Assembly (NCBI RefSeq): GCF_000213655.1
Contig: NC_015554.1
Location: forward strand, 3,224,001 to 3,288,000
Direction of reading: 5' to 3'
Origin: Alteromonas naphthalenivorans
GTDB lineage: Bacteria > Pseudomonadota > Gammaproteobacteria > Enterobacterales > Alteromonadaceae
DNA length: 64,000 bases
Part shown: piece after piece, positions 34,872 through 44,876 of the stretch
Layout of the letters: each line of letters starts with the position of its first letter
Numbering within the stretch: the first letter of the stretch is position 1
Notes under the pieces: generated by a model
What the model was told of the DNA's origin: nothing
Seen by the model: only the letters and a program-made list of their open reading frames with translations
The model's database searches: none
Made by a program: the position numbers and the translations under genes

Positions 34872-35189
34872 CACTCACCTCCGGCCAAGTTCCCTATTTG
34901 AAAGTACTGCTTTGCCTACTAAATTGAAGTAAGTCTTACTACTACCCTTTAAAAGTTAGTTCACAATAGAAATATGTAACAAGTTTATTTTTAACCTTTT
35001 AGATAAAAGGCTACACTTACTATTCAGCACTTATTTTTTGTTACCGTTTTGTGTCATATTTTTAAGTTAGAGATCGGCATATAGCGCGAACAAAACACCC
35101 TTGTGGTTATGAAGCTACCACCTACATTTATAATAATCGGTAGTCATAAGAACAAGTTTACGCTGTCTCACTCAACTAGGAATTTATCC

Positions 35190-35690
35190 ATGAAAACTTA
35201 CCCAACTTGCGTGGTTTGTTTAATATTGCTTGCCTCATTGAGTGCCGCTTACAGCGAGGCCGCTGATTGGGATGTTTCTGATTGGGATGCTTCTGATTGG
35301 AATGGCTACTACGGCCCTATCGTGTTCAAAAGTGAAAAAATAGCAAAGTGGAAGATTAAAAGCCGCTTTAATGAAACACGCCTTGAATCCATACCTGGCT
35401 ACGATAATCATTTTAATGCTAGCAAAAATAGCCAACTATCAATTCGCGCTCACCGTGCGTTAACGCTACTTTTCGAACAACAAATATATGCCTCGTTTAA
35501 TACGAGCCACTCACCTTTGCAGTACTATCCTGAATGGCGCTATATACCTGAAGACTTAGGCACTTTTACTCGACTGGGTTGGTTAGTTGGTGACGAGAGT
35601 GGTTTAAATATGGCGTTGGAATTTGAACATCGAGAAGTAGGAGATAAAGAAAATAATGCGCTTACGTTAGGTGTTCAATACTTTTTCTAA
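35190..35690 (+). CDS. Small secreted, possibly outer-membrane, protein
   Basis: Not a family I recognise. From the ATG at 35190 (AGGA ten bases upstream) it has 166 residues with a signal peptide (MKTYPTCVVCLILLASLSAA). Right after the cleavage region is a short repeat, DWDVSDWDASDWN, then strand-like segments ending in NALTLGVQYFF, an aromatic terminus that suggests outer-membrane insertion. The open frame extends up to 35103, but those residues lack a ribosome site and precede the signal peptide. It is convergent with the exonuclease gene at 35718. Confidence 0.65.
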   Translation: MKTYPTCVVCLILLASLSAAYSEAADWDVSDWDASDWNGYYGPIVFKSEKIAKWKIKSRFNETRLESIPGYDNHFNASKNSQLSIRAHRALTLLFEQQIYASFNTSHSPLQYYPEWRYIPEDLGTFTRLGWLVGDESGLNMALEFEHREVGDKENNALTLGVQYFF

Positions 35691-36461: not shown

Positions 36462-37610
36462 TTACTCAGCCACTGCCAAGTTGAGAATTTGCTCACTCAC
36501 TTCTGGGGTAATGGCTCCCGTTTCACCGAGTGAAAGCATTTTGTTTCCTTTCAGCTTTTCTACCACAGCATTAACGGCACTTTGCTTGTCGCCTTCATGC
36601 TCAGTAAGCTGGGTAGCGACTTCAAGACTCTGGTAGAAGGCTTCGATAGCGTCGATAGTTCGAAGCGCAATATCATCGCTCTCTTCTAGACCAAATACGT
36701 TTTGACCCATCTGTGATAGCTTTGCTGACTTAGTGTCAAGTTGAACCCGTAGTAGTGACGGCTGGACAATCGCTAATGAACGAGCATGATCTACGCCATA
36801 CAGTGCCGTGAGTTCGTGGCCAATCATATGGGTAGCCCAATCTTGCGCAACACCTGAACCGATAAGGCCATTTAGTGCTTGGTTTGCTGACCACATAAGG
36901 TTAGCGCGCCATGCATCATCTTTGTTATCAATTTTTCCGCCAAGTTGAATTAAGGTTTTCAGCAAGGTTTCAGCGTAGCCGTCTTGAACCGGCGCATTTT
37001 GTGGAAAGGTTAAGTACTGCTCGCAAACGTGAACAAAGGCATCCACTAAACCGTTAACCACTTGTCGATGCGGAAGGCTTTTTATTACATCGGGGTCTAA
37101 TACCGCAAATTGCGGATAAACTAACGGGGACATAAACGCCAGCTTTTGCTTGGTTGCTTTCTTACTTATAACAGAACCGCCGTTCGATTCAGAACCTGTT
37201 GCTGGTAAGGTTAGAATGGCACCGATAGGTAGCGCGTTATCAACGGTATGCTTGCCCGTTAGAATATCCCAGCCCTCACCCTCATATACGGCGCTTGCCG
37301 CCACATATTTTGCGCCATCAATAACACTTCCCCCGCCTACTGCAAGAATATAGTCAACGCCTGTTTCTTTAATCAGTGCAACCGCTTTGTCTAGTGTTTC
37401 AATGGTTGGGTTTGGCTCAACGCCACCAAAAGATTCCCAGTTGTAGCCATCTAGCGCGTTCTCTACTTGCTCATAAACACCATTTTTTTTGATGGAACCG
37501 CCACCAAATAACACTAAAACGTGGCTGTCCTTTGGGATTAGGGTGTTGATTGAGCCAATTTGTCCTTGGCCAAATTGGATCCGAGTTGGGTTGCTGAATG
37601 AAAATTTCAT
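36462..37610 (-). CDS. yqhD: NADPH-dependent aldehyde reductase, iron-containing ADH family (YqhD)
   Basis: A 382-residue type III alcohol dehydrogenase very like E. coli YqhD: NPTRIQFGQGQIGSI, VLVLFGGGSIKKNGVYEQV, FGGVEPNPTIETLDKAV, GGGSVIDGAKYVAA, TLPATGSESNGGSVISK and QDWATHMIGHELTALYGVDH with the metal-binding histidines. It reduces short-chain and lipid-peroxidation aldehydes such as glyoxal. The frame opens at 37730, but the ATG at 37610 begins the conserved sequence and has GGAAAG upstream. Divergent from an AraC-family gene at 37653, the same pairing as yqhC/yqhD. Confidence 0.93.
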   Translation of the reverse strand: MKFSFSNPTRIQFGQGQIGSINTLIPKDSHVLVLFGGGSIKKNGVYEQVENALDGYNWESFGGVEPNPTIETLDKAVALIKETGVDYILAVGGGSVIDGAKYVAASAVYEGEGWDILTGKHTVDNALPIGAILTLPATGSESNGGSVISKKATKQKLAFMSPLVYPQFAVLDPDVIKSLPHRQVVNGLVDAFVHVCEQYLTFPQNAPVQDGYAETLLKTLIQLGGKIDNKDDAWRANLMWSANQALNGLIGSGVAQDWATHMIGHELTALYGVDHARSLAIVQPSLLRVQLDTKSAKLSQMGQNVFGLEESDDIALRTIDAIEAFYQSLEVATQLTEHEGDKQSAVNAVVEKLKGNKMLSLGETGAITPEVSEQILNLAVAE

Positions 37611-37652
37611 GGTCTTTCCTCTGTCATTACATGCCTGTGTTAATGCATAATA

Positions 37653-38609
37653 GTGCCATTTAGTGTAAACAAACCGTCTATTTCTGGAAAAAATTTGCCT
37701 ATTTCTACAAACAACCCAGGCTCTACTCATAATTTGGCTTTTTTAAGTCAAATTCTGAAACAGTTTTTACACGCAAAAGGTAAATCAGCGCTTAGTGGTG
37801 TGAGCAAGACGGATATAGATGGCGTACGAGTTTTTCGCGATCCTTATGGCAGCCCTAAGCAGCCATTACTTTATCAGTCTGGCATTATTATCATGCTACA
37901 AGGCACTAAACGTTTGTATGTTGATAATCGTGAAATCGAATACAAAAAAGGCGATTACATTGTTTTCGGTGTGCCCTTGCCTGCTCAATGTGCAGCCACC
38001 TTAGATGATGACGATTGCATATTAGGTTTAGTCATTGATATTCCCGCGTCGTTGCTTGTAGAGCTTTCACAATGGCGTGACGACAAGGCCAAAAATAGCC
38101 CCGCTCCTATTTTTACAGTAAGTCAGCAGTCATTAGATGCAAACATAACCGATGCAACACGCAGACTACTTCAAGCATTAACTCACAGTAATAGTGCCAA
38201 AGCATTGGGTGCAGGTTTTGTGCGAGAAATTGTATATTACATCCTTAATGGCCCTGCCGGTCATGTTCTTTGCGGCCTTACCGACAATGGGCATTATGCG
38301 AGAATCGCCCAAGCTTTGCGGACCATTCATGATGAGTATTCCTCTGTGTTAAACGTAGACTCACTTGCCGCTAGTGCTAACATGAGTGTTTCTGGTTTCC
38401 ACCGCGCATTTCGGGATGTAGTAATGGATTCACCCGTTCAATATATAAAAAAATTTAGACTATCTAAAGCCAGGGAGTTAATCGCATTAGGTTATCGAGT
38501 GGGAGACGCTGCCGAAGCGGTGGGTTATAACAGCTTATCTCAATTCTCTAGAGAGTTTAAACGCTACTACCAATTCACTCCTGTACAAGACCGTCAATCT
38601 GCTCATTAA
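37653..38609 (+). CDS. AraC-family regulator (YqhC-like), start uncertain
   Basis: AraC/XylS regulator of up to 318 residues. The N-terminal cupin-like sensing domain resembles AraC_N (DPYGSPKQPLLYQSGIIIML), and the C-terminal double helix-turn-helix is clear (VDSLAASANMSVSGFHRAFR, then VGDAAEAVGYNSLSQFSREF). It is probably the activator of divergent yqhD in response to aldehydes. The GTG at 37653 leaves only 42 bases between the genes and puts a 21-base-phased direct repeat (37676-37711) inside the coding region. A TTG at 37734 is in frame and would leave the repeat intergenic; I consider the later start plausible. Confidence 0.87.
   Translation: MPFSVNKPSISGKNLPISTNNPGSTHNLAFLSQILKQFLHAKGKSALSGVSKTDIDGVRVFRDPYGSPKQPLLYQSGIIIMLQGTKRLYVDNREIEYKKGDYIVFGVPLPAQCAATLDDDDCILGLVIDIPASLLVELSQWRDDKAKNSPAPIFTVSQQSLDANITDATRRLLQALTHSNSAKALGAGFVREIVYYILNGPAGHVLCGLTDNGHYARIAQALRTIHDEYSSVLNVDSLAASANMSVSGFHRAFRDVVMDSPVQYIKKFRLSKARELIALGYRVGDAAEAVGYNSLSQFSREFKRYYQFTPVQDRQSAH
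37676..37711. promoter_or_regulatory. Phased direct repeat between yqhD and its AraC regulator
   Basis: Two 15-base units match at 12 positions, both holding CTATTTCT (37678-37685 and 37699-37706). Their spacing of 21 bases is two helical turns, as in AraC half-sites. It lies 66-101 bases upstream of yqhD. Confidence 0.6.
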
Positions 38610-38784: not shown

Positions 38785-39960
38785 ATGCGCTTACGTTTCA
38801 CATTTTGGTTCTTAACGTTAATGACATTAAGTTTTCACTCTAACGGCAGTGAGGCGTCGACACCACTTTATATTGGTATAGATGCAGACTTTTCGGCTGT
38901 CGCTGTGGACGGTGGTGTAGCCATTAAACGAGGCGTTGAACTTGCTGTAGATGAAATTAATAAAAAAGGGGGATTGCTAGGCCGCCCCCTTAATATCATT
39001 TTAAAAGATCATAGAGGCAACCCTGCTCGGGGCATTCATAATATTGAACAGCTCGCCACCAATGGCGACTTAATTGCGGTAATAGGAGGTGTGCATACGC
39101 CTGTTGCGTTAGCCGAGCTTGAGTCTATTCACCAACTTAACTTGCTATATCTCGTGCCTTGGGCAGCAGGTACACAAGTGGTTGACAACCAATATGCTCC
39201 TAACAATGTATTTCGCGTATCAGTTCGTGATGCAGAGGCGGGAAAAGTACTTATTCAGCATGCTGCTTCTCGCGGTATTAAACGTGTAGCGCTGGTTTTA
39301 GAGCGTACTGGGTGGGGTCGTTCTAACGAGGCATCGCTCACCTTAGCCGCTGCCGAAATGGGGATTACCATTACGACTACTCGCTGGATTAACTGGCAGC
39401 AGAAAAAATTTGAAGAAGATATATCTGCTATCAAATCAGACAAAGCAGAAGCCATCATTTTGGTTGCCAACGCACCTGAAGGGGCAGTAGTCGTAAACGA
39501 ATTAGCAGCACAAAACCTCACAGCTTTACCTGTAATTTCCCATTGGGGCATTGCTTCGGGCAATTTTATAGAGCGTTTGAACGTTGAGCCCGACTTACTT
39601 AATTTGTCAGTATTACAAACCTTCCACTTTGATCATCAAAAACATACAAAAGCCCAACAATTGTTAGAAGCTTATCATAGTAAGTATGGGCTCGTAGACC
39701 CTAAATCTATCCCAGCTGTAACAGGCATTGCGCACGCTTATGATTTAGTTAACATGCTAGCTAAAGCCGTGGCAAAAGCAGGCAGTCATGATGTAAATGC
39801 GCTACGAAATTCACTAGAAGACTTGGGGAGTTTTGAAGGTGTAATCAAAACTTATGACCCAGCATTTACACCCACACAGCATGACGCATTAATGGCTAAG
39901 GACTATTTTATGGCTTCATTTGATAAAAAAGGTAACTTGGTCGTTCTGGAAAATCAGTAA
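38785..39960 (+). CDS. Periplasmic substrate-binding protein, Leu/Ile/Val-BP family
   Basis: A 391-residue type I periplasmic binding protein with a signal peptide ending near NGSEAS. Fold signatures: LYIGIDADFSAV, AIKRGVELAVDEINKKGGLLG, LIAVIGGVHTPVALAELESI, and RGIKRVALVLERTGWG. The family binds amino acids, urea or amides; the ligand is not evident. No transporter permease or ATPase is next to it. Instead the stop codon overlaps the start of a hybrid histidine kinase (TAATG), so a receptor role like LuxP with LuxQ is the better inference. Confidence 0.9.
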   Translation: MRLRFTFWFLTLMTLSFHSNGSEASTPLYIGIDADFSAVAVDGGVAIKRGVELAVDEINKKGGLLGRPLNIILKDHRGNPARGIHNIEQLATNGDLIAVIGGVHTPVALAELESIHQLNLLYLVPWAAGTQVVDNQYAPNNVFRVSVRDAEAGKVLIQHAASRGIKRVALVLERTGWGRSNEASLTLAAAEMGITITTTRWINWQQKKFEEDISAIKSDKAEAIILVANAPEGAVVVNELAAQNLTALPVISHWGIASGNFIERLNVEPDLLNLSVLQTFHFDHQKHTKAQQLLEAYHSKYGLVDPKSIPAVTGIAHAYDLVNMLAKAVAKAGSHDVNALRNSLEDLGSFEGVIKTYDPAFTPTQHDALMAKDYFMASFDKKGNLVVLENQ

Positions 39961-42830
39961 TGCAATTTCAGCCACCACCGCTTAGAAAGCGCTTATTAAC
40001 CAGCATGCTACCCCGTTTGTTCGGGTTGATTTTAGTTGTTGCGTTAATGCTTTTTGCGTTTGCCTTCTTTTTTGCCAAGCAGCAGATCGAAACGGTACAA
40101 CAACAGTCTATTGAAGGCTTAAAACAAGACCTTTCTTTTATCGTTAATGATACCACTCGACAATTATCTGACCTTGCATCTAACGATATCATTATTAATT
40201 CTCTGGTAGATTTAGAGCAGCGTGATAATTATCTTCCCATGTTCTTTAGGTCGTTAAAGTTAACCCAAACCCGTAATGTGGAGTTTGCGTTGTACGACTT
40301 TTCCGGCGAAATGGTTATTCAGAAAAACTGGAGTCATTCTATTTCTGAAAAACTGGATACTGCGTGGCAACAAAAAACACTAGGCGCGTCTCTTTCATTT
40401 TCTTCAATCTCTCACAATGGCGTGCTTTTTTCTGTCCCAGTACTTTTAGGTGGTGCAGCAGAAGGTGCGCTGGTTATGTATGTAGAGAGCCTTCAAGACT
40501 TGCTAGCCCCCTACCCAAGGCTAACTAACCAGATTGTTACTGAACAAAATGGCGTAGTACTTTTCAGTAGTGAGCCGGAATTTATTATTCCCGGTACATC
40601 GTTTAGTGATGTCGACACCATGGGCTATGTGTTGCAAGACTCGCGCTATCAAAACTTAACCCTGTATAGCATTAAACCTATCGGCAATGCTCTGAAAGGC
40701 TTGTATTGGTTGGCGCTACTCATGCTGGCCATTATTGTAGGTATTATCTTAGTTAATTTTCACATGATTCGAACCACTGCACTACTTGCAGAGAACACCT
40801 TATCAGCCCTTTATAAAGATATAGTTAACCGTATTAAAGATACCGACTCACAAGAGTCAGTGATTGTAGAAGAGGCTAGAGAATTAGCCAATATTCGCAG
40901 TGCATTTGATACCTTAATTTCTGACCTTGCGGAAATGTCTTTATCGAACGAACAGTTTTCTAATGTTATTGATTCGATGGGAGATATGCTCTTAGTGGTA
41001 GATGAAAACCATCGCGTGATGTTAAGCAACAAACGGTTCGATGCTTTTTGTGAAGATCAATACGGAGAGCGTGAAGGTACGGTTAAGTACATACTCAATA
41101 AGCTCATTAATAAACCTTCTGGAGAGTTAAAACATTTCTCGGTAGAAGACGGATTGGAAAAGCATATTAAATGGACCAATACGCCGCTTGAAGATGCTAA
41201 CCATAACATCAGAGGCGCTATATTCGTAGGGGTCGACTATAGCACTCAGCGTTCGCTAGAAAGTCATGTGCAAATTCTTAATCACGCCATGGATGAAGCC
41301 ACGGTCTCTATTGTTATTGCGGATATAAAGCGTACGGGTCAACCAATTATCTATGTTAACAATGCGTTCAATCGCCTTACTGGTTACAATAAAGAAGATA
41401 TTATTGGTAGAAATTGCAGGTTTATGCAAGGTGAAGGTACTGATAGCAATACCACCGCACTAATACGCAGCGCTATCGCTAAGCGCGAGCCAATTGAAAC
41501 CACCATTCTTAATTACCGTAAAGACGGTGCCTCTTTTTATAACAAACTCATCCTCACGCCAGTAAAGTCTGACGGCGAAGTCACACACTACATTGGCTTT
41601 CAACAGGATGTTACGCAGCAACGCCAAGCAGAGCGCTATTTACAAGACGCGAAGCAAAAGGCGGAAGAGTCAGCGCATATGAAATCTGGCTTCCTTGCCA
41701 GTATGAGCCATGAAATACGTACGCCTATTCACGGTATTTCTGGCGTACTTCAGTTGCTCACGAATTCACCATTAAACGACGAGCAAAAACATTACCTCTC
41801 ACTTGCTACGTTCAGCATTCAAGGTCTACTGCACATTGTTAATGACATTCTTGATTTTTCTAAGATTGAGGCCGGGCAACTTCAAATTGATGATCAACCT
41901 TTCGATTTGCTAGAAACCCTTGAAAGCTTGCAGTCGCAATACGCTATTTTATGTCAAGAAAAGGGACTACGTCTGCATTTTCATTTTAACCTACAAGGCT
42001 TTCACGTAGTCATTGGAGACTCTGTTCGTTTCCGGCAGATTTTGTCTAACTTGATTGGTAACGCGGTTAAATTCACTGAGAAAGGTGAAATTGACGTAAC
42101 TACCACCTTAGAACATACCAACGACGACAAGCTTCGCTTAACCTGCGCAGTAAAAGATTCAGGGATAGGCATCGCGAAAGACAAACAAGCAGGAATTTTT
42201 GATGTATTTACCCAAGAAGACCTATCTACAACCCGCAAATTTGGCGGCACGGGCCTTGGGCTTTCTATCAGTAAACAGTTGTGTGAGCTTATGGATGGTG
42301 AAATTCATTTAGAAAGTGAGAAAGGTGAAGGAAGTACATTCACTTTCAATATCATGCTAAAAGAAGGTGATGACAGCTTAGTTACACTCCAAGGAAGTAA
42401 AACCCATAACCACAATACGGTAACTCAAAAACGTAAAATTCTCATCGTTGAAGATAACGACATCAATCAGGTCATTGTGAAGCAGCACTTAAGTGCCCAC
42501 AAAACCTTGAGTGCGAAATCGGGTATAGAAGCATTAGAAGCCCTAAAGAAAATGAAAGTGACTTTTGATTTAATATTGATGGACTGCCAAATGCCCGACA
42601 TGGATGGTTTTGAAGCAACTCGCCGTATTCGACGCGGTGAAGCCGGCGAGCGATATGTTAATGCCCCCATCATTGCACTTACAGCGAACGCCATGAAAGG
42701 TGATAAAGAAGACTGTTTTAACGCTGGCATGAACGACTATTTGAGTAAACCCTTCGATGTTCAAGACCTATTAGAAAAAGTAGATTACTGGGCTGAAAAA
42801 AACGCGGTAGCCAAACTTCAGCTTAGCTGA
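39960..42830 (+). CDS. Hybrid sensor histidine kinase with periplasmic sensor, PAS and LOV domains
   Basis: A 956-residue membrane kinase. Order: TM1 (18-39), periplasmic domain (about 40-247), TM2 (248-271), PAS (about 320-435), LOV (about 437-555), HisKA with MSHEIRTPIHG (His584), HATPase (NLIGNAVKFTEKGE, DSGIGIAKD, GGTGLGLSISK) and a receiver (VEDNDIN; phospho-acceptor Asp875 in LMDCQMPDMDG; Lys in YLSKPFD). The LOV motif GRNCRFMQ has the photoactive Cys486, and the flavin contacts NYRKDGASFYN and YIGFQQD are conserved, so a working blue-light sensor is likely. There is no Hpt domain, so phosphotransfer must go to another protein. Translationally coupled to the binding protein upstream. 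Confidence 0.93.
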   Translation: MQFQPPPLRKRLLTSMLPRLFGLILVVALMLFAFAFFFAKQQIETVQQQSIEGLKQDLSFIVNDTTRQLSDLASNDIIINSLVDLEQRDNYLPMFFRSLKLTQTRNVEFALYDFSGEMVIQKNWSHSISEKLDTAWQQKTLGASLSFSSISHNGVLFSVPVLLGGAAEGALVMYVESLQDLLAPYPRLTNQIVTEQNGVVLFSSEPEFIIPGTSFSDVDTMGYVLQDSRYQNLTLYSIKPIGNALKGLYWLALLMLAIIVGIILVNFHMIRTTALLAENTLSALYKDIVNRIKDTDSQESVIVEEARELANIRSAFDTLISDLAEMSLSNEQFSNVIDSMGDMLLVVDENHRVMLSNKRFDAFCEDQYGEREGTVKYILNKLINKPSGELKHFSVEDGLEKHIKWTNTPLEDANHNIRGAIFVGVDYSTQRSLESHVQILNHAMDEATVSIVIADIKRTGQPIIYVNNAFNRLTGYNKEDIIGRNCRFMQGEGTDSNTTALIRSAIAKREPIETTILNYRKDGASFYNKLILTPVKSDGEVTHYIGFQQDVTQQRQAERYLQDAKQKAEESAHMKSGFLASMSHEIRTPIHGISGVLQLLTNSPLNDEQKHYLSLATFSIQGLLHIVNDILDFSKIEAGQLQIDDQPFDLLETLESLQSQYAILCQEKGLRLHFHFNLQGFHVVIGDSVRFRQILSNLIGNAVKFTEKGEIDVTTTLEHTNDDKLRLTCAVKDSGIGIAKDKQAGIFDVFTQEDLSTTRKFGGTGLGLSISKQLCELMDGEIHLESEKGEGSTFTFNIMLKEGDDSLVTLQGSKTHNHNTVTQKRKILIVEDNDINQVIVKQHLSAHKTLSAKSGIEALEALKKMKVTFDLILMDCQMPDMDGFEATRRIRRGEAGERYVNAPIIALTANAMKGDKEDCFNAGMNDYLSKPFDVQDLLEKVDYWAEKNAVAKLQLS

Positions 42831-43025: not shown

Positions 43026-44876
43026 ATGTTGGCAGTAAGATACCGTCGACGCTATAGGCTCTGTCAGATTTTAACTATATTAGGGGTACTTTTCCTATTT
43101 GCGTTAGGGATTTTTAGCGTCGTCGACGGCGCATATGTCTTAGGCACCATATTAATCGTTAACGCTCTGGTCGGCCTGCTAAACCTTTATCTCTTAAAAC
43201 GTACAGGTAATATTGAGCGCGCTGCTACGATCCTAAGTGGTATTCTTTTCTTCTTATCAATGAGCTTAATAATTACAGGTGGTAAGGATAATACTGGAGT
43301 ACTGTGGGTTTACCCAATTGGGGCCATCAACCTTTTCATCAATCGTTTTTGGCCTGCGGTGTTTTGGTTTGGGGCTTTCAATATTGCCAGTGGACTGCTG
43401 CTGTTTACGCCCCTTTCAACTTTAATGATCGCTAGCTATTCATTCGTTGAGGCAGTTCGCTTCATTCTAACGATGCTGGCACTAAATTCTATCTGTCTAG
43501 CCGCCTTGCGATCTGAAGAACAAGCCTATCAAACGATTATGCAACTTCATGCTGATGATATCCGGCAGATGGCTTTTTACGATACGCTGACCGGCCTTCC
43601 CAATCGCTGGAGCTTCAAAACTAATCTAGAACGCCTGCTAGCCCGAGCAGGGAAAGATAAACAACGCATTGGCTTACTGTATATTGACCTAGACAACTTT
43701 AAGCAAGTTAATGACCAATACGGCCATGAAGCAGGCGACCGACTATTGCTTGAATTCAGTGAACGGCTTTGGGAAGAAATACGTCCCACCGACCAACTGT
43801 TGAAGCCAGAAGCAGAAAGTTTGGCAAGACTCGCTGGCGATGAGTTTGTTGTGCTACTTCCTAACATTAAAGAGCCGCTCGATGCCAGTGTTGTCGCAAC
43901 ACGCATACTGAATATCTTCGATGGTGGTTTCGAAGTCGATGACGTGACGCATATGATTTATGCCAGTATTGGCATTGCCGTGTATCCCGATGACGCTACC
44001 GAGCCCTCTATGTTACTTCATCATGCAGATGCGGCTATGTATGACGCCAAAGACAACGGCCGTAATTGCTTTAGGTTTTTCACTCAGAAAATTGCCGATA
44101 CAATGCACCAACGACAACAGATTGAAAGAGGGTTACGACAGGCGTTAAGTGAAGAGCATTTCTCTTTGGTTTATATGCCTATATTCGACTGTAAAGACAA
44201 CACCATCGCAGCCGTAGAAGTACTGCTTCGCTGTCAAAGCCCTGAACTAGAAGGGTTTGGCCCAGACCACTTTATACCGGTTGCGGAAGCTACCGGCTAT
44301 ATCAAAGAAATTGATTTATGGGTGCTGGACAATGCCTTGCAGGCGCTAGTTATCTTGCAACAAAAACATCACTTTAAGGGACAGATGTGTATAAATATCT
44401 CTGGAGTAGAGCTGCACAATGAAGCCTTTCCCGTACAGCTTAAGGACCTATTGGAACGCTATAAGATTACCCCTGATAGTGTAGAGCTTGAAATCACTGA
44501 AACCGCATTTGTGGCTGATGACGCAATTGGCTTAGCAACGCTAAAAGCACTAAATGAGCTAGGAGTATCTTTAGCATTGGATGACTTTGGAACAGGCTAC
44601 ACCGCTTTTAGTCAACTGATACATTACCCAGCTGACTGTCTTAAAATTGACCGCTCATTTGTTAATGATCTTTTTTCAGAACGAGAAGCACGCAGCAAGA
44701 TGGTGATGGTTATTCAAAGCTTGGCTAAGCTATATGACCTTCGCGTCATTGCCGAAGGCGTTGAAACCGAAGCTCAGATGAATTATCTACGGGAAAACGG
44801 TTGTGATTGGGCGCAGGGATACTATTTATCTCGCCCGCTGCCTTGGGACAACTTAGTTAAATTATTGAGCGAATGA
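43026..44876 (+). CDS. GGDEF-EAL protein with N-terminal membrane domain
   Basis: A 616-residue c-di-GMP enzyme. About six membrane helices fill residues 10-165. The GGDEF domain (about 185-350) has AGDEF at 270-274, an allowed variant of GGDEF. The EAL domain (about 370-610) has EVLLR at Glu398 in place of EALLR, and intact LALDDFGTGYTAF and IAEGVETEAQ, so phosphodiesterase activity is likely. Whether the cyclase half is active is uncertain because no RxxD I-site precedes it. It follows the LOV kinase by 195 bases on the same strand and may be an output of that pathway, but separate transcription is possible. Confidence 0.9.
   Translation: MLAVRYRRRYRLCQILTILGVLFLFALGIFSVVDGAYVLGTILIVNALVGLLNLYLLKRTGNIERAATILSGILFFLSMSLIITGGKDNTGVLWVYPIGAINLFINRFWPAVFWFGAFNIASGLLLFTPLSTLMIASYSFVEAVRFILTMLALNSICLAALRSEEQAYQTIMQLHADDIRQMAFYDTLTGLPNRWSFKTNLERLLARAGKDKQRIGLLYIDLDNFKQVNDQYGHEAGDRLLLEFSERLWEEIRPTDQLLKPEAESLARLAGDEFVVLLPNIKEPLDASVVATRILNIFDGGFEVDDVTHMIYASIGIAVYPDDATEPSMLLHHADAAMYDAKDNGRNCFRFFTQKIADTMHQRQQIERGLRQALSEEHFSLVYMPIFDCKDNTIAAVEVLLRCQSPELEGFGPDHFIPVAEATGYIKEIDLWVLDNALQALVILQQKHHFKGQMCINISGVELHNEAFPVQLKDLLERYKITPDSVELEITETAFVADDAIGLATLKALNELGVSLALDDFGTGYTAFSQLIHYPADCLKIDRSFVNDLFSEREARSKMVMVIQSLAKLYDLRVIAEGVETEAQMNYLRENGCDWAQGYYLSRPLPWDNLVKLLSE

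What the first reader, a model, noticed from the sequence alone, without database searches (positions are those of the whole stretch)
39960..42830. Hybrid histidine kinase that appears to sense both blue light and a periplasmic ligand
Seen: the LOV motif GRNCRFMQ with Cys486, the flavin contacts NYRKDGASFYN and YIGFQQD, a periplasmic domain between two membrane helices, and an SBP gene whose stop overlaps the kinase start (TAATG). Known: photoactive LOV domains need that Cys; LuxP/LuxQ shows an SBP can gate a hybrid kinase. Inference: one kinase integrates blue light with a small-molecule signal. I know of no described SBP-LOV kinase pair, but I cannot search.
Basis: partly seen in the sequence, partly recalled or inferred. 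Interest (0 to 1): 0.75.

Follow-up and report, generated by a model that had tools for sequence, protein, structure and literature searches.

The report
Light-sensing kinase paired with binding protein
A marine bacterium carries a membrane signalling protein that appears built to sense blue light inside the cell and, through a partner binding protein, a small molecule outside it; relatives keep the pair, and some have lost only the light-sensing site, so the two inputs could be told apart by experiment.

Summary
Window 39960-42830 encodes a 956-aa hybrid kinase (two membrane helices around a dCache-like domain, PAS-like region, Cys-LOV, HisKA, HATPase, receiver). Its ATG overlaps the stop of a LIV-type binding-protein gene (38785-39960). 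The pairing is conserved: 40 of 59 genus genomes have both genes, adjacent in all 40, and 19 have neither. All 62 named relatives of the binding protein lie within 1.4 kb of a dCache and/or kinase gene. LOV chemistry is not universal: 27 of 40 genus kinases keep the Cys and the Asn/Asn/Gln contacts; 13 have lost the Cys while keeping SBP, dCache, kinase and receiver. Trees place these losses among LOV-bearing rows, at least twice. In the genus this kinase holds every Cys-LOV found (E up to 1e-14): 0 of 55 other LOV-like domains has the Cys. The LOV-to-His linker is 34 residues in 40 of 40. Best reading: a binding-protein-coupled membrane kinase with blue light as a second, dispensable input. 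Light response, binding-protein contact, ligand and target are untested, and a co-evolution test was inconclusive. Both parts are known kinds; ten open-access literature searches showed me no description of the combination.

The parts
38785..39960 (+). LIV-type periplasmic substrate-binding protein gene (391 aa, Peripla_BP_6, apparent N-terminal signal sequence); no BPD_transp_2 permease gene near
   Evidence: signal sequence read by eye
39960..42830 (+). membrane hybrid histidine kinase, 956 aa; ATG overlaps the SBP stop (TAATG)
40020..40697 (+). transmembrane helix 1 plus dCache-like periplasmic domain (about residues 21-246)
   Evidence: hydropathy; model mc2a93afe4279 (pLDDT 86.4) and fold matches; dCache_1 in 27 of 42 aligned sequences, not in the window protein itself
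40698..40784 (+). transmembrane helix 2 (about residues 247-275)
   Evidence: hydropathy, model
40932..41255 (+). non-LOV PAS-like region (about residues 325-432)
   Evidence: alignment and position; Pfam calls no domain here in the window protein; PAS_8/PAS_3 in some relatives
41262..41645 (+). LOV domain: C486, N485, R487, Q490, N518, N528, Q548
41607..41711 (+). 34-residue linker from DVT Asp550 to phospho-acceptor His584
   Evidence: 34 residues in 40 of 40 genus kinases
41682..42359 (+). HisKA (575-639) and HATPase_c (686-800)
42438..42782 (+). C-terminal receiver domain (827-941)

Best explanation
The two overlapping genes form one sensory unit. The secreted binding protein captures an unknown small molecule and acts on the dCache-like periplasmic domain of the kinase (inferred by analogy with LuxP-LuxQ). 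That signal passes through membrane helix 2 and a PAS-like relay into the LOV domain. The LOV domain binds flavin and forms a Cys486 adduct in blue light (inferred from residue conservation). Both inputs then feed the same 34-residue linker, taken to be a coiled coil, into His584, so light tunes the kinase/phosphatase balance set by the ligand. Phosphate goes from His584 to the C-terminal receiver, then presumably to a separate Hpt and response regulator, which I did not look for genome-wide. Shown: anatomy, gene pairing, residue conservation, constant linker length, repeated loss of the LOV site with the rest kept. Inferred: flavin binding, photochemistry, SBP contact, direction of response, integration, ligand, target.
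Against: 13 of 40 genus kinases persist without the LOV site. The LOV+/LOV- difference in identity shrinks in closer pairs (70-80%: 70.2 against 59.5, n=134 and 8; over 80%: 82.4 against 81.5, n=99 and 3). SBP-dCache partial correlation 0.52 (60 rows, bootstrap 0.13-0.69) became -0.05 in 33 genus rows with metK controlled. Of nine more distant SBP loci (32-36% identity) read, three (L115, L146, L147) have no kinase match downstream. The window's periplasmic domain gives no Pfam hit and no significant PDB sequence match. No conserved output gene: the GGDEF-EAL gene downstream occurs in 6 of 40. No light, ligand or binding measurement exists here.
Confidence: 0.6

Rival explanations
1. The SBP-coupled kinase is the working system and the LOV domain mainly serves as a structural or redox relay; blue light is a minor or vestigial input.
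For: LOV chemistry lost at least twice with the rest kept; holding the 13 losses as one clade is rejected, p-AU 1.96e-5. LOV proteins can signal by flavin photoreduction without the Cys (PMC4682037, passages).
Against: The 27 LOV+ genus rows all keep the Cys with both Asn and the Gln although their kinase cores differ by up to 40-50%, which a mere spacer would not need.
Confidence: 0.17
2. The dCache domain binds its ligand directly, as many dCache sensors do; the SBP acts beside it (scavenger, ligand carrier or independent product of the same operon), not as an activating partner.
For: Close folds include directly liganded dCache sensors, such as Tlp3 with leucine and DctB with malonate or succinate. 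Within-genus co-variation test negative.
Against: Strict co-occurrence and adjacency in 40 genus genomes, and 62 named loci that reach Alpha- and Betaproteobacteria and outputs as different as cyclase and kinase, argue for a functional unit.
Confidence: 0.18
3. The SBP is an ABC-transport component that merely shares a transcript with the kinase.
For: Nearest solved relatives are largely transport-type SBPs.
Against: The genome's only two BPD_transp_2 matches sit with the other Peripla_BP_6 gene, 1.38 Mb away. ABC ATPases were not searched.
Confidence: 0.05

Closest known systems
LuxP-LuxQ (autoinducer-2 sensor)
   Same: An SBP with a membrane hybrid kinase whose periplasmic domain has a tandem PAS/dCache-type fold; LuxQ in complex with LuxP is among the fold matches.
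   Different: The SBP is Peripla_BP_6 and no LuxP chain is among 48 profile hits. NCBIfam LuxQ model 369 bits against a cut-off of 1200, over residues 532-944 only. LuxQ has no LOV domain (recalled).
TorT-TorS, XylFII-LytS and AioX-AioS
   Same: A binding protein acts on a sensor kinase (PMC6321045 and PMC5908839, passages; for AioX the paper says 'is thought to').
   Different: No photoreceptor domain is mentioned in the passages read.
LOV histidine kinases (LovK, Brucella LOV-HK, EL346; engineered YF1)
   Same: Cys-LOV joined by a helical linker to a kinase core; YF1 aligns across LOV and kinase, E 7.6e-45.
   Different: LOV kinases are described as mostly soluble and cytosolic (PMC6798134, passages); this one spans the membrane and has a dCache-like sensor and a paired SBP. 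Linker 34 residues, against 36 counted by eye for YF1 in the alignment.
BvgS
   Same: Periplasmic Venus-flytrap sensing plus a cytoplasmic PAS with DIT/DVT motif before the kinase (PMC13322254, passage).
   Different: The flytrap domains are part of the same chain; the PAS is not described there as LOV.

Membership tests
LOV photoreceptor domain | PAS/LOV core | tested here: met
   PAS_9 1.6e-20; LOV structures to about 1e-30
LOV photoreceptor domain | adduct Cys in the GxNCRFLQ motif | tested here: met
   C486 in IGRNCRFMQ; 27 of 40 genus kinases
LOV photoreceptor domain | flavin-contact Asn, Asn, Gln (and Arg, Gln) | tested here: met
   N518, N528, Q548, R487, Q490; role of these positions recalled
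LOV photoreceptor domain | flavin binding and blue-light photocycle | not testable with these tools
   needs purified protein
SBP-coupled sensor kinase | conserved adjacency of SBP and kinase genes | tested here: met
   40 of 40 genus genomes with the kinase; 62 of 62 named SBP loci beside dCache and/or kinase; 3 of 9 distant SBP loci (32-36%) without kinase match
SBP-coupled sensor kinase | periplasmic sensor domain between two membrane helices | tested here: met
SBP-coupled sensor kinase | physical SBP-sensor complex | not testable with these tools
LuxP-LuxQ | LuxP-family binding protein | tested here: inconclusive
   no LuxP chain among 48 profile hits at E up to 0.01; SBP is Peripla_BP_6
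LuxP-LuxQ | full-length LuxQ model score | tested here: not met
   NCBIfam LuxQ_Vibrio 369.2 bits, cut-off 1200, residues 532-944 only
soluble LOV histidine kinase | no membrane helices | tested here: not met
   two hydrophobic helices
dCache_1 sensor domain | Pfam dCache_1 match or dCache fold | tested here: met
ABC-transport SBP | cognate permease genes in the operon | tested here: not met
   both BPD_transp_2 matches of the genome lie at 4.64 Mb with the other SBP

The most novel reading that the evidence does not exclude
A widespread proteobacterial SBP-dCache sensor module was given a LOV domain, mainly in marine gammaproteobacteria, making a true two-input receptor in which blue light gates the response to one extracellular compound. 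In the Alteromonas genus set it is the only Cys-LOV found, and the light input has been switched off at least twice by decay of the flavin site while the chemical input and linker register stayed unchanged: a natural experiment in losing one input of a dual sensor.
Probability: 0.5. Interest if true: 0.75.

Novelty: new variant of a known kind. Interest (0 to 1): 0.6.

Why it matters
LOV kinases are studied mostly as soluble, light-driven proteins and SBP-gated kinases as chemical receptors. Here one conserved gene pair appears to carry both. Orthologues with and without the light site share the SBP, the linker length and the kinase core, so light and ligand inputs could be compared in related natural proteins, and the way two inputs meet in one linker becomes directly testable. 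It would also give heterotrophic marine bacteria a way to make the response to a dissolved compound depend on light.

Tried and rejected
Natural SBP-kinase fusion: one search reported a 1373-aa open frame for the SBP of G301, but the locus holds two separate ORFs with a 3-nt gap; rejected.

Downstream GGDEF-EAL gene as conserved output: found in 6 of 40 (window plus 5 relatives); rejected as part of the system.

Co-evolution of SBP and dCache: partial correlation 0.52 in 60 rows (1594 of 1770 row pairs usable; bootstrap 0.13-0.69), but -0.05 in 33 genus rows with metK as control; treated as inconclusive.

All Cys-less kinases as one clade: rejected on the kinase tree without PAS/LOV/receiver columns (62 rows, p-AU 1.96e-5). 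The SBP tree (78 rows) asks for three changes in that class, the kinase tree two; I claim at least two. Both are quick searches with long branches flagged in the outputs.

Rows dropped: the SBP tree left out the SBP loci without a partner match or with only a weak one (L115, L146-L150, L152), L192, L194 and second copies of the same genomes. The kinase tree also left out L134 and L135 (late start, split frame) and all but 4 of 18 no-LOV rows; the correlation further left out L207 and L211. Linker length could not be read in L136 and L137. Of 18 distant SBP hits outside the genus (32-36% identity) I fetched 8, plus G083.

Ligand: nearest folds bind 3-hydroxybenzoate, branched-chain amino acids, other aromatic acids, urea or amides; too broad to name one. 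BLUF, cryptochrome and rhodopsin genes were not searched.

Habitat: some LOV-minus species names suggest sediment, saltern or deep-sea isolates, but this is recall and was not tested.

Literature: ten searches showed no title or abstract start describing an SBP-LOV kinase pair; I saw listings (15 of 39 papers: 7 of 8) and then passages of 12 papers, none in full. Most subscription papers are missing, and the 2016 census of LOV architectures was not held, so absence from print is not shown.
Full report
What is there. The window lies in a 4.97-Mb single-contig genome; its nearest named relatives are Alteromonas. ORF 39960-42830 (+) codes for 956 residues and begins on the last base of the stop codon of ORF 38785-39960 (TAATG). 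The first gene is a Peripla_BP_6 binding protein (3.2e-44). The second is a hybrid kinase with PAS_9 at 460-553, HisKA 575-639, HATPase 686-800 and receiver 827-941. Hydropathy gives two membrane helices, near 12-43 and 244-276, and one weak window inside the domain between them. The LOV motif is IGRNCRFMQ with Cys486; N518, N528, Q548, R487 and Q490 are all present. YtvA, other LOV proteins and the engineered LOV kinase YF1 align over this part.

Is the pair conserved? In 59 genus genomes the kinase (N-terminal part plus LOV, E up to 1e-40) occurs in 40 and the SBP (E up to 1e-60) in 40. They are the same 40; 19 have neither. In all 39 relatives that I read, SBP and kinase are adjacent and co-directional: 4-nt overlap in 7, the TAATG type overlap in 21, gaps of 0 to 7 nt in 11. 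metK lies upstream within the fetched stretch in 32 of 39, with a piece of it in 3 more, so the locus is in one place. Among 62 named loci found with an SBP alignment (a pattern scan, so a selected set), 62 of 62 have a dCache and/or kinase gene within 1.4 kb downstream: 60 with a kinase match, 59 with a dCache match. L191 has a diguanylate cyclase instead, and L192 ends at the contig edge. Named loci overlap the genus set, so the counts must not be added. Of nine more distant SBP loci (32-36% identity), three (L115, L146, L147) have no kinase match downstream, four have weak ones (24-28% identity) and two have a LOV kinase.

Is the LOV site conserved? In the genus set 27 of 40 kinases keep the Cys, and all 27 also keep Q490, N518, N528 and Q548 (R487 is Lys or Ala in 3). 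In the other 13 the Cys is gone, N518 in 13 of 13, Q490 in 12 of 13, Q548 in 11 of 13 and N528 in 8 of 13. SBP, dCache, kinase and receiver remain. Outside the genus, 12 of 12 loci of the family search with SBP identity 45% or more keep the Cys, 10 of them with N518, N528 and Q548. Among the 62 named loci 33 keep the Cys, 31 with all three contacts. Of 15 loci whose record titles I take as alphaproteobacterial, 1 (L207) has a Cys-LOV; one of the 15 is cut by its contig end. A more distant SBP (32-35% identity) in two genomes (L151, L153) also precedes a kinase with a Cys-LOV.

Loss, not absence. On the SBP tree (78 rows) and on a kinase tree built without PAS, LOV and receiver columns (62 rows) the 13 LOV-minus rows sit among LOV-bearing rows. 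Holding them as one clade is rejected (p-AU 1.96e-5), so the site was lost at least twice. At 50-60% kinase-core identity, LOV-region identity averages 55.3% between LOV-plus rows (74 pairs), 32.5% between LOV-minus rows (25 pairs) and 39.0% across (331 pairs). The PAS-like and dCache regions show no such difference (31.8 and 32.4; 33.9 and 34.6). In closer pairs the gap narrows: 61.3 against 42.5 at 60-70%, 70.2 against 59.5 at 70-80% (8 LOV-minus pairs), 82.4 against 81.5 above 80% (3 LOV-minus pairs) (all). Pairs are not independent. The LOV region thus looks specially constrained where the Cys is kept.

The only Cys-LOV. A search of the 59 genus genomes with the LOV domain (E up to 1e-14) gave 95 matches: the 40 pair members and 55 other LOV-like domains. 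I read 54 of the 55 and the window genome's own: 0 of 55 has the Cys. So Cys-LOV in this genus set was found only in the SBP-linked kinase, and genomes that lost it there show none elsewhere at this threshold. In the window's genome four other matches reach E 1e-4; the three that align over the motif lack the Cys, and the fourth aligned only poorly in my check. Other photoreceptor classes were not searched.

Coupling geometry. From the Asp of the DVT motif to the phospho-acceptor His is 34 residues in 40 of 40 genus kinases, LOV-plus and LOV-minus alike. In 17 further rows 15 could be read: 34 in 11, 41 in 3, 20 in 1. All equal 6 modulo 7. Heptad-periodic linkers are the known mark of coiled-coil relay in LOV kinases, and in YF1 adding one residue inverts the light response (PMC6798134, passages). 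YF1 counts 36 by the same measure (by eye), so the sign of the light response cannot be read off.

Mechanism. The most likely reading is a two-input receptor: SBP with ligand acts on dCache, blue light on LOV, and both act through the same linker on the HisKA helix; output leaves through the receiver to an unidentified Hpt and regulator. The anatomy, pairing, constraint and losses are shown. SBP contact, photochemistry and integration are inferred. Against it stand the 13 LOV-minus orthologues, the direct ligand binding of many dCache domains, and a co-variation test that was positive in a broad set but not within the genus.

Known or new. SBP-gated kinases (LuxQ, TorS, LytS; PMC6321045, passages) and LOV kinases (mostly soluble; PMC6798134, passages) are established. 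Ten searches of the open-access library showed no title or abstract start for an SBP-LOV kinase pair, and the passages that I read in 12 papers did not mention one; subscription papers are mostly missing. I rate it a new variant of a known kind.

Noticed in passing
L191:5974-9071: A gammaproteobacterial MAG pairs the same SBP family with a HAMP-PAS-GGDEF diguanylate cyclase whose N-terminal part matches the dCache region, instead of a kinase, so the sensor pair can drive different outputs.
   Followed up: partly
L210:4867-9525: A Methylobacter MAG has a 743-aa protein that looks like a membrane-anchored TRAP-type (DctP-like, by eye) binding domain fused to the LIV-type SBP, directly before a kinase with a receiver match.
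   Followed up: no
L151:4701-9252 and L153:4003-8543: A more distant SBP (32-35% identity) precedes a PAS-LOV kinase with the Cys and two receivers (dCache_1 matched in L153 only); possibly a second SBP-LOV lineage.
   Followed up: partly
L217 (window genome C1:350322-350612) and L224-L277: The genus has many LOV-like PAS domains with Pro, Gly or Val at the Cys position, in two common forms (GETPRIFQ and KGKKPGSFLQ); their function is unknown.
   Followed up: partly
window 35103-35690: A small protein with a possible signal sequence is kept on the same strand a few genes upstream of the SBP in 36 of 39 relatives; function unknown, not searched.
   Followed up: no
window 43026-44876: GGDEF-EAL membrane protein 196 bases downstream of the kinase, found only in the window and its 5 closest relatives (6 of 40).
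   Followed up: yes
window 36462-38609: Iron-type alcohol dehydrogenase and divergent AraC regulator lie between the conserved metK neighbourhood and the SBP in the window and a minority of relatives (ADH in 9, AraC in 7 of 39).
   Followed up: partly
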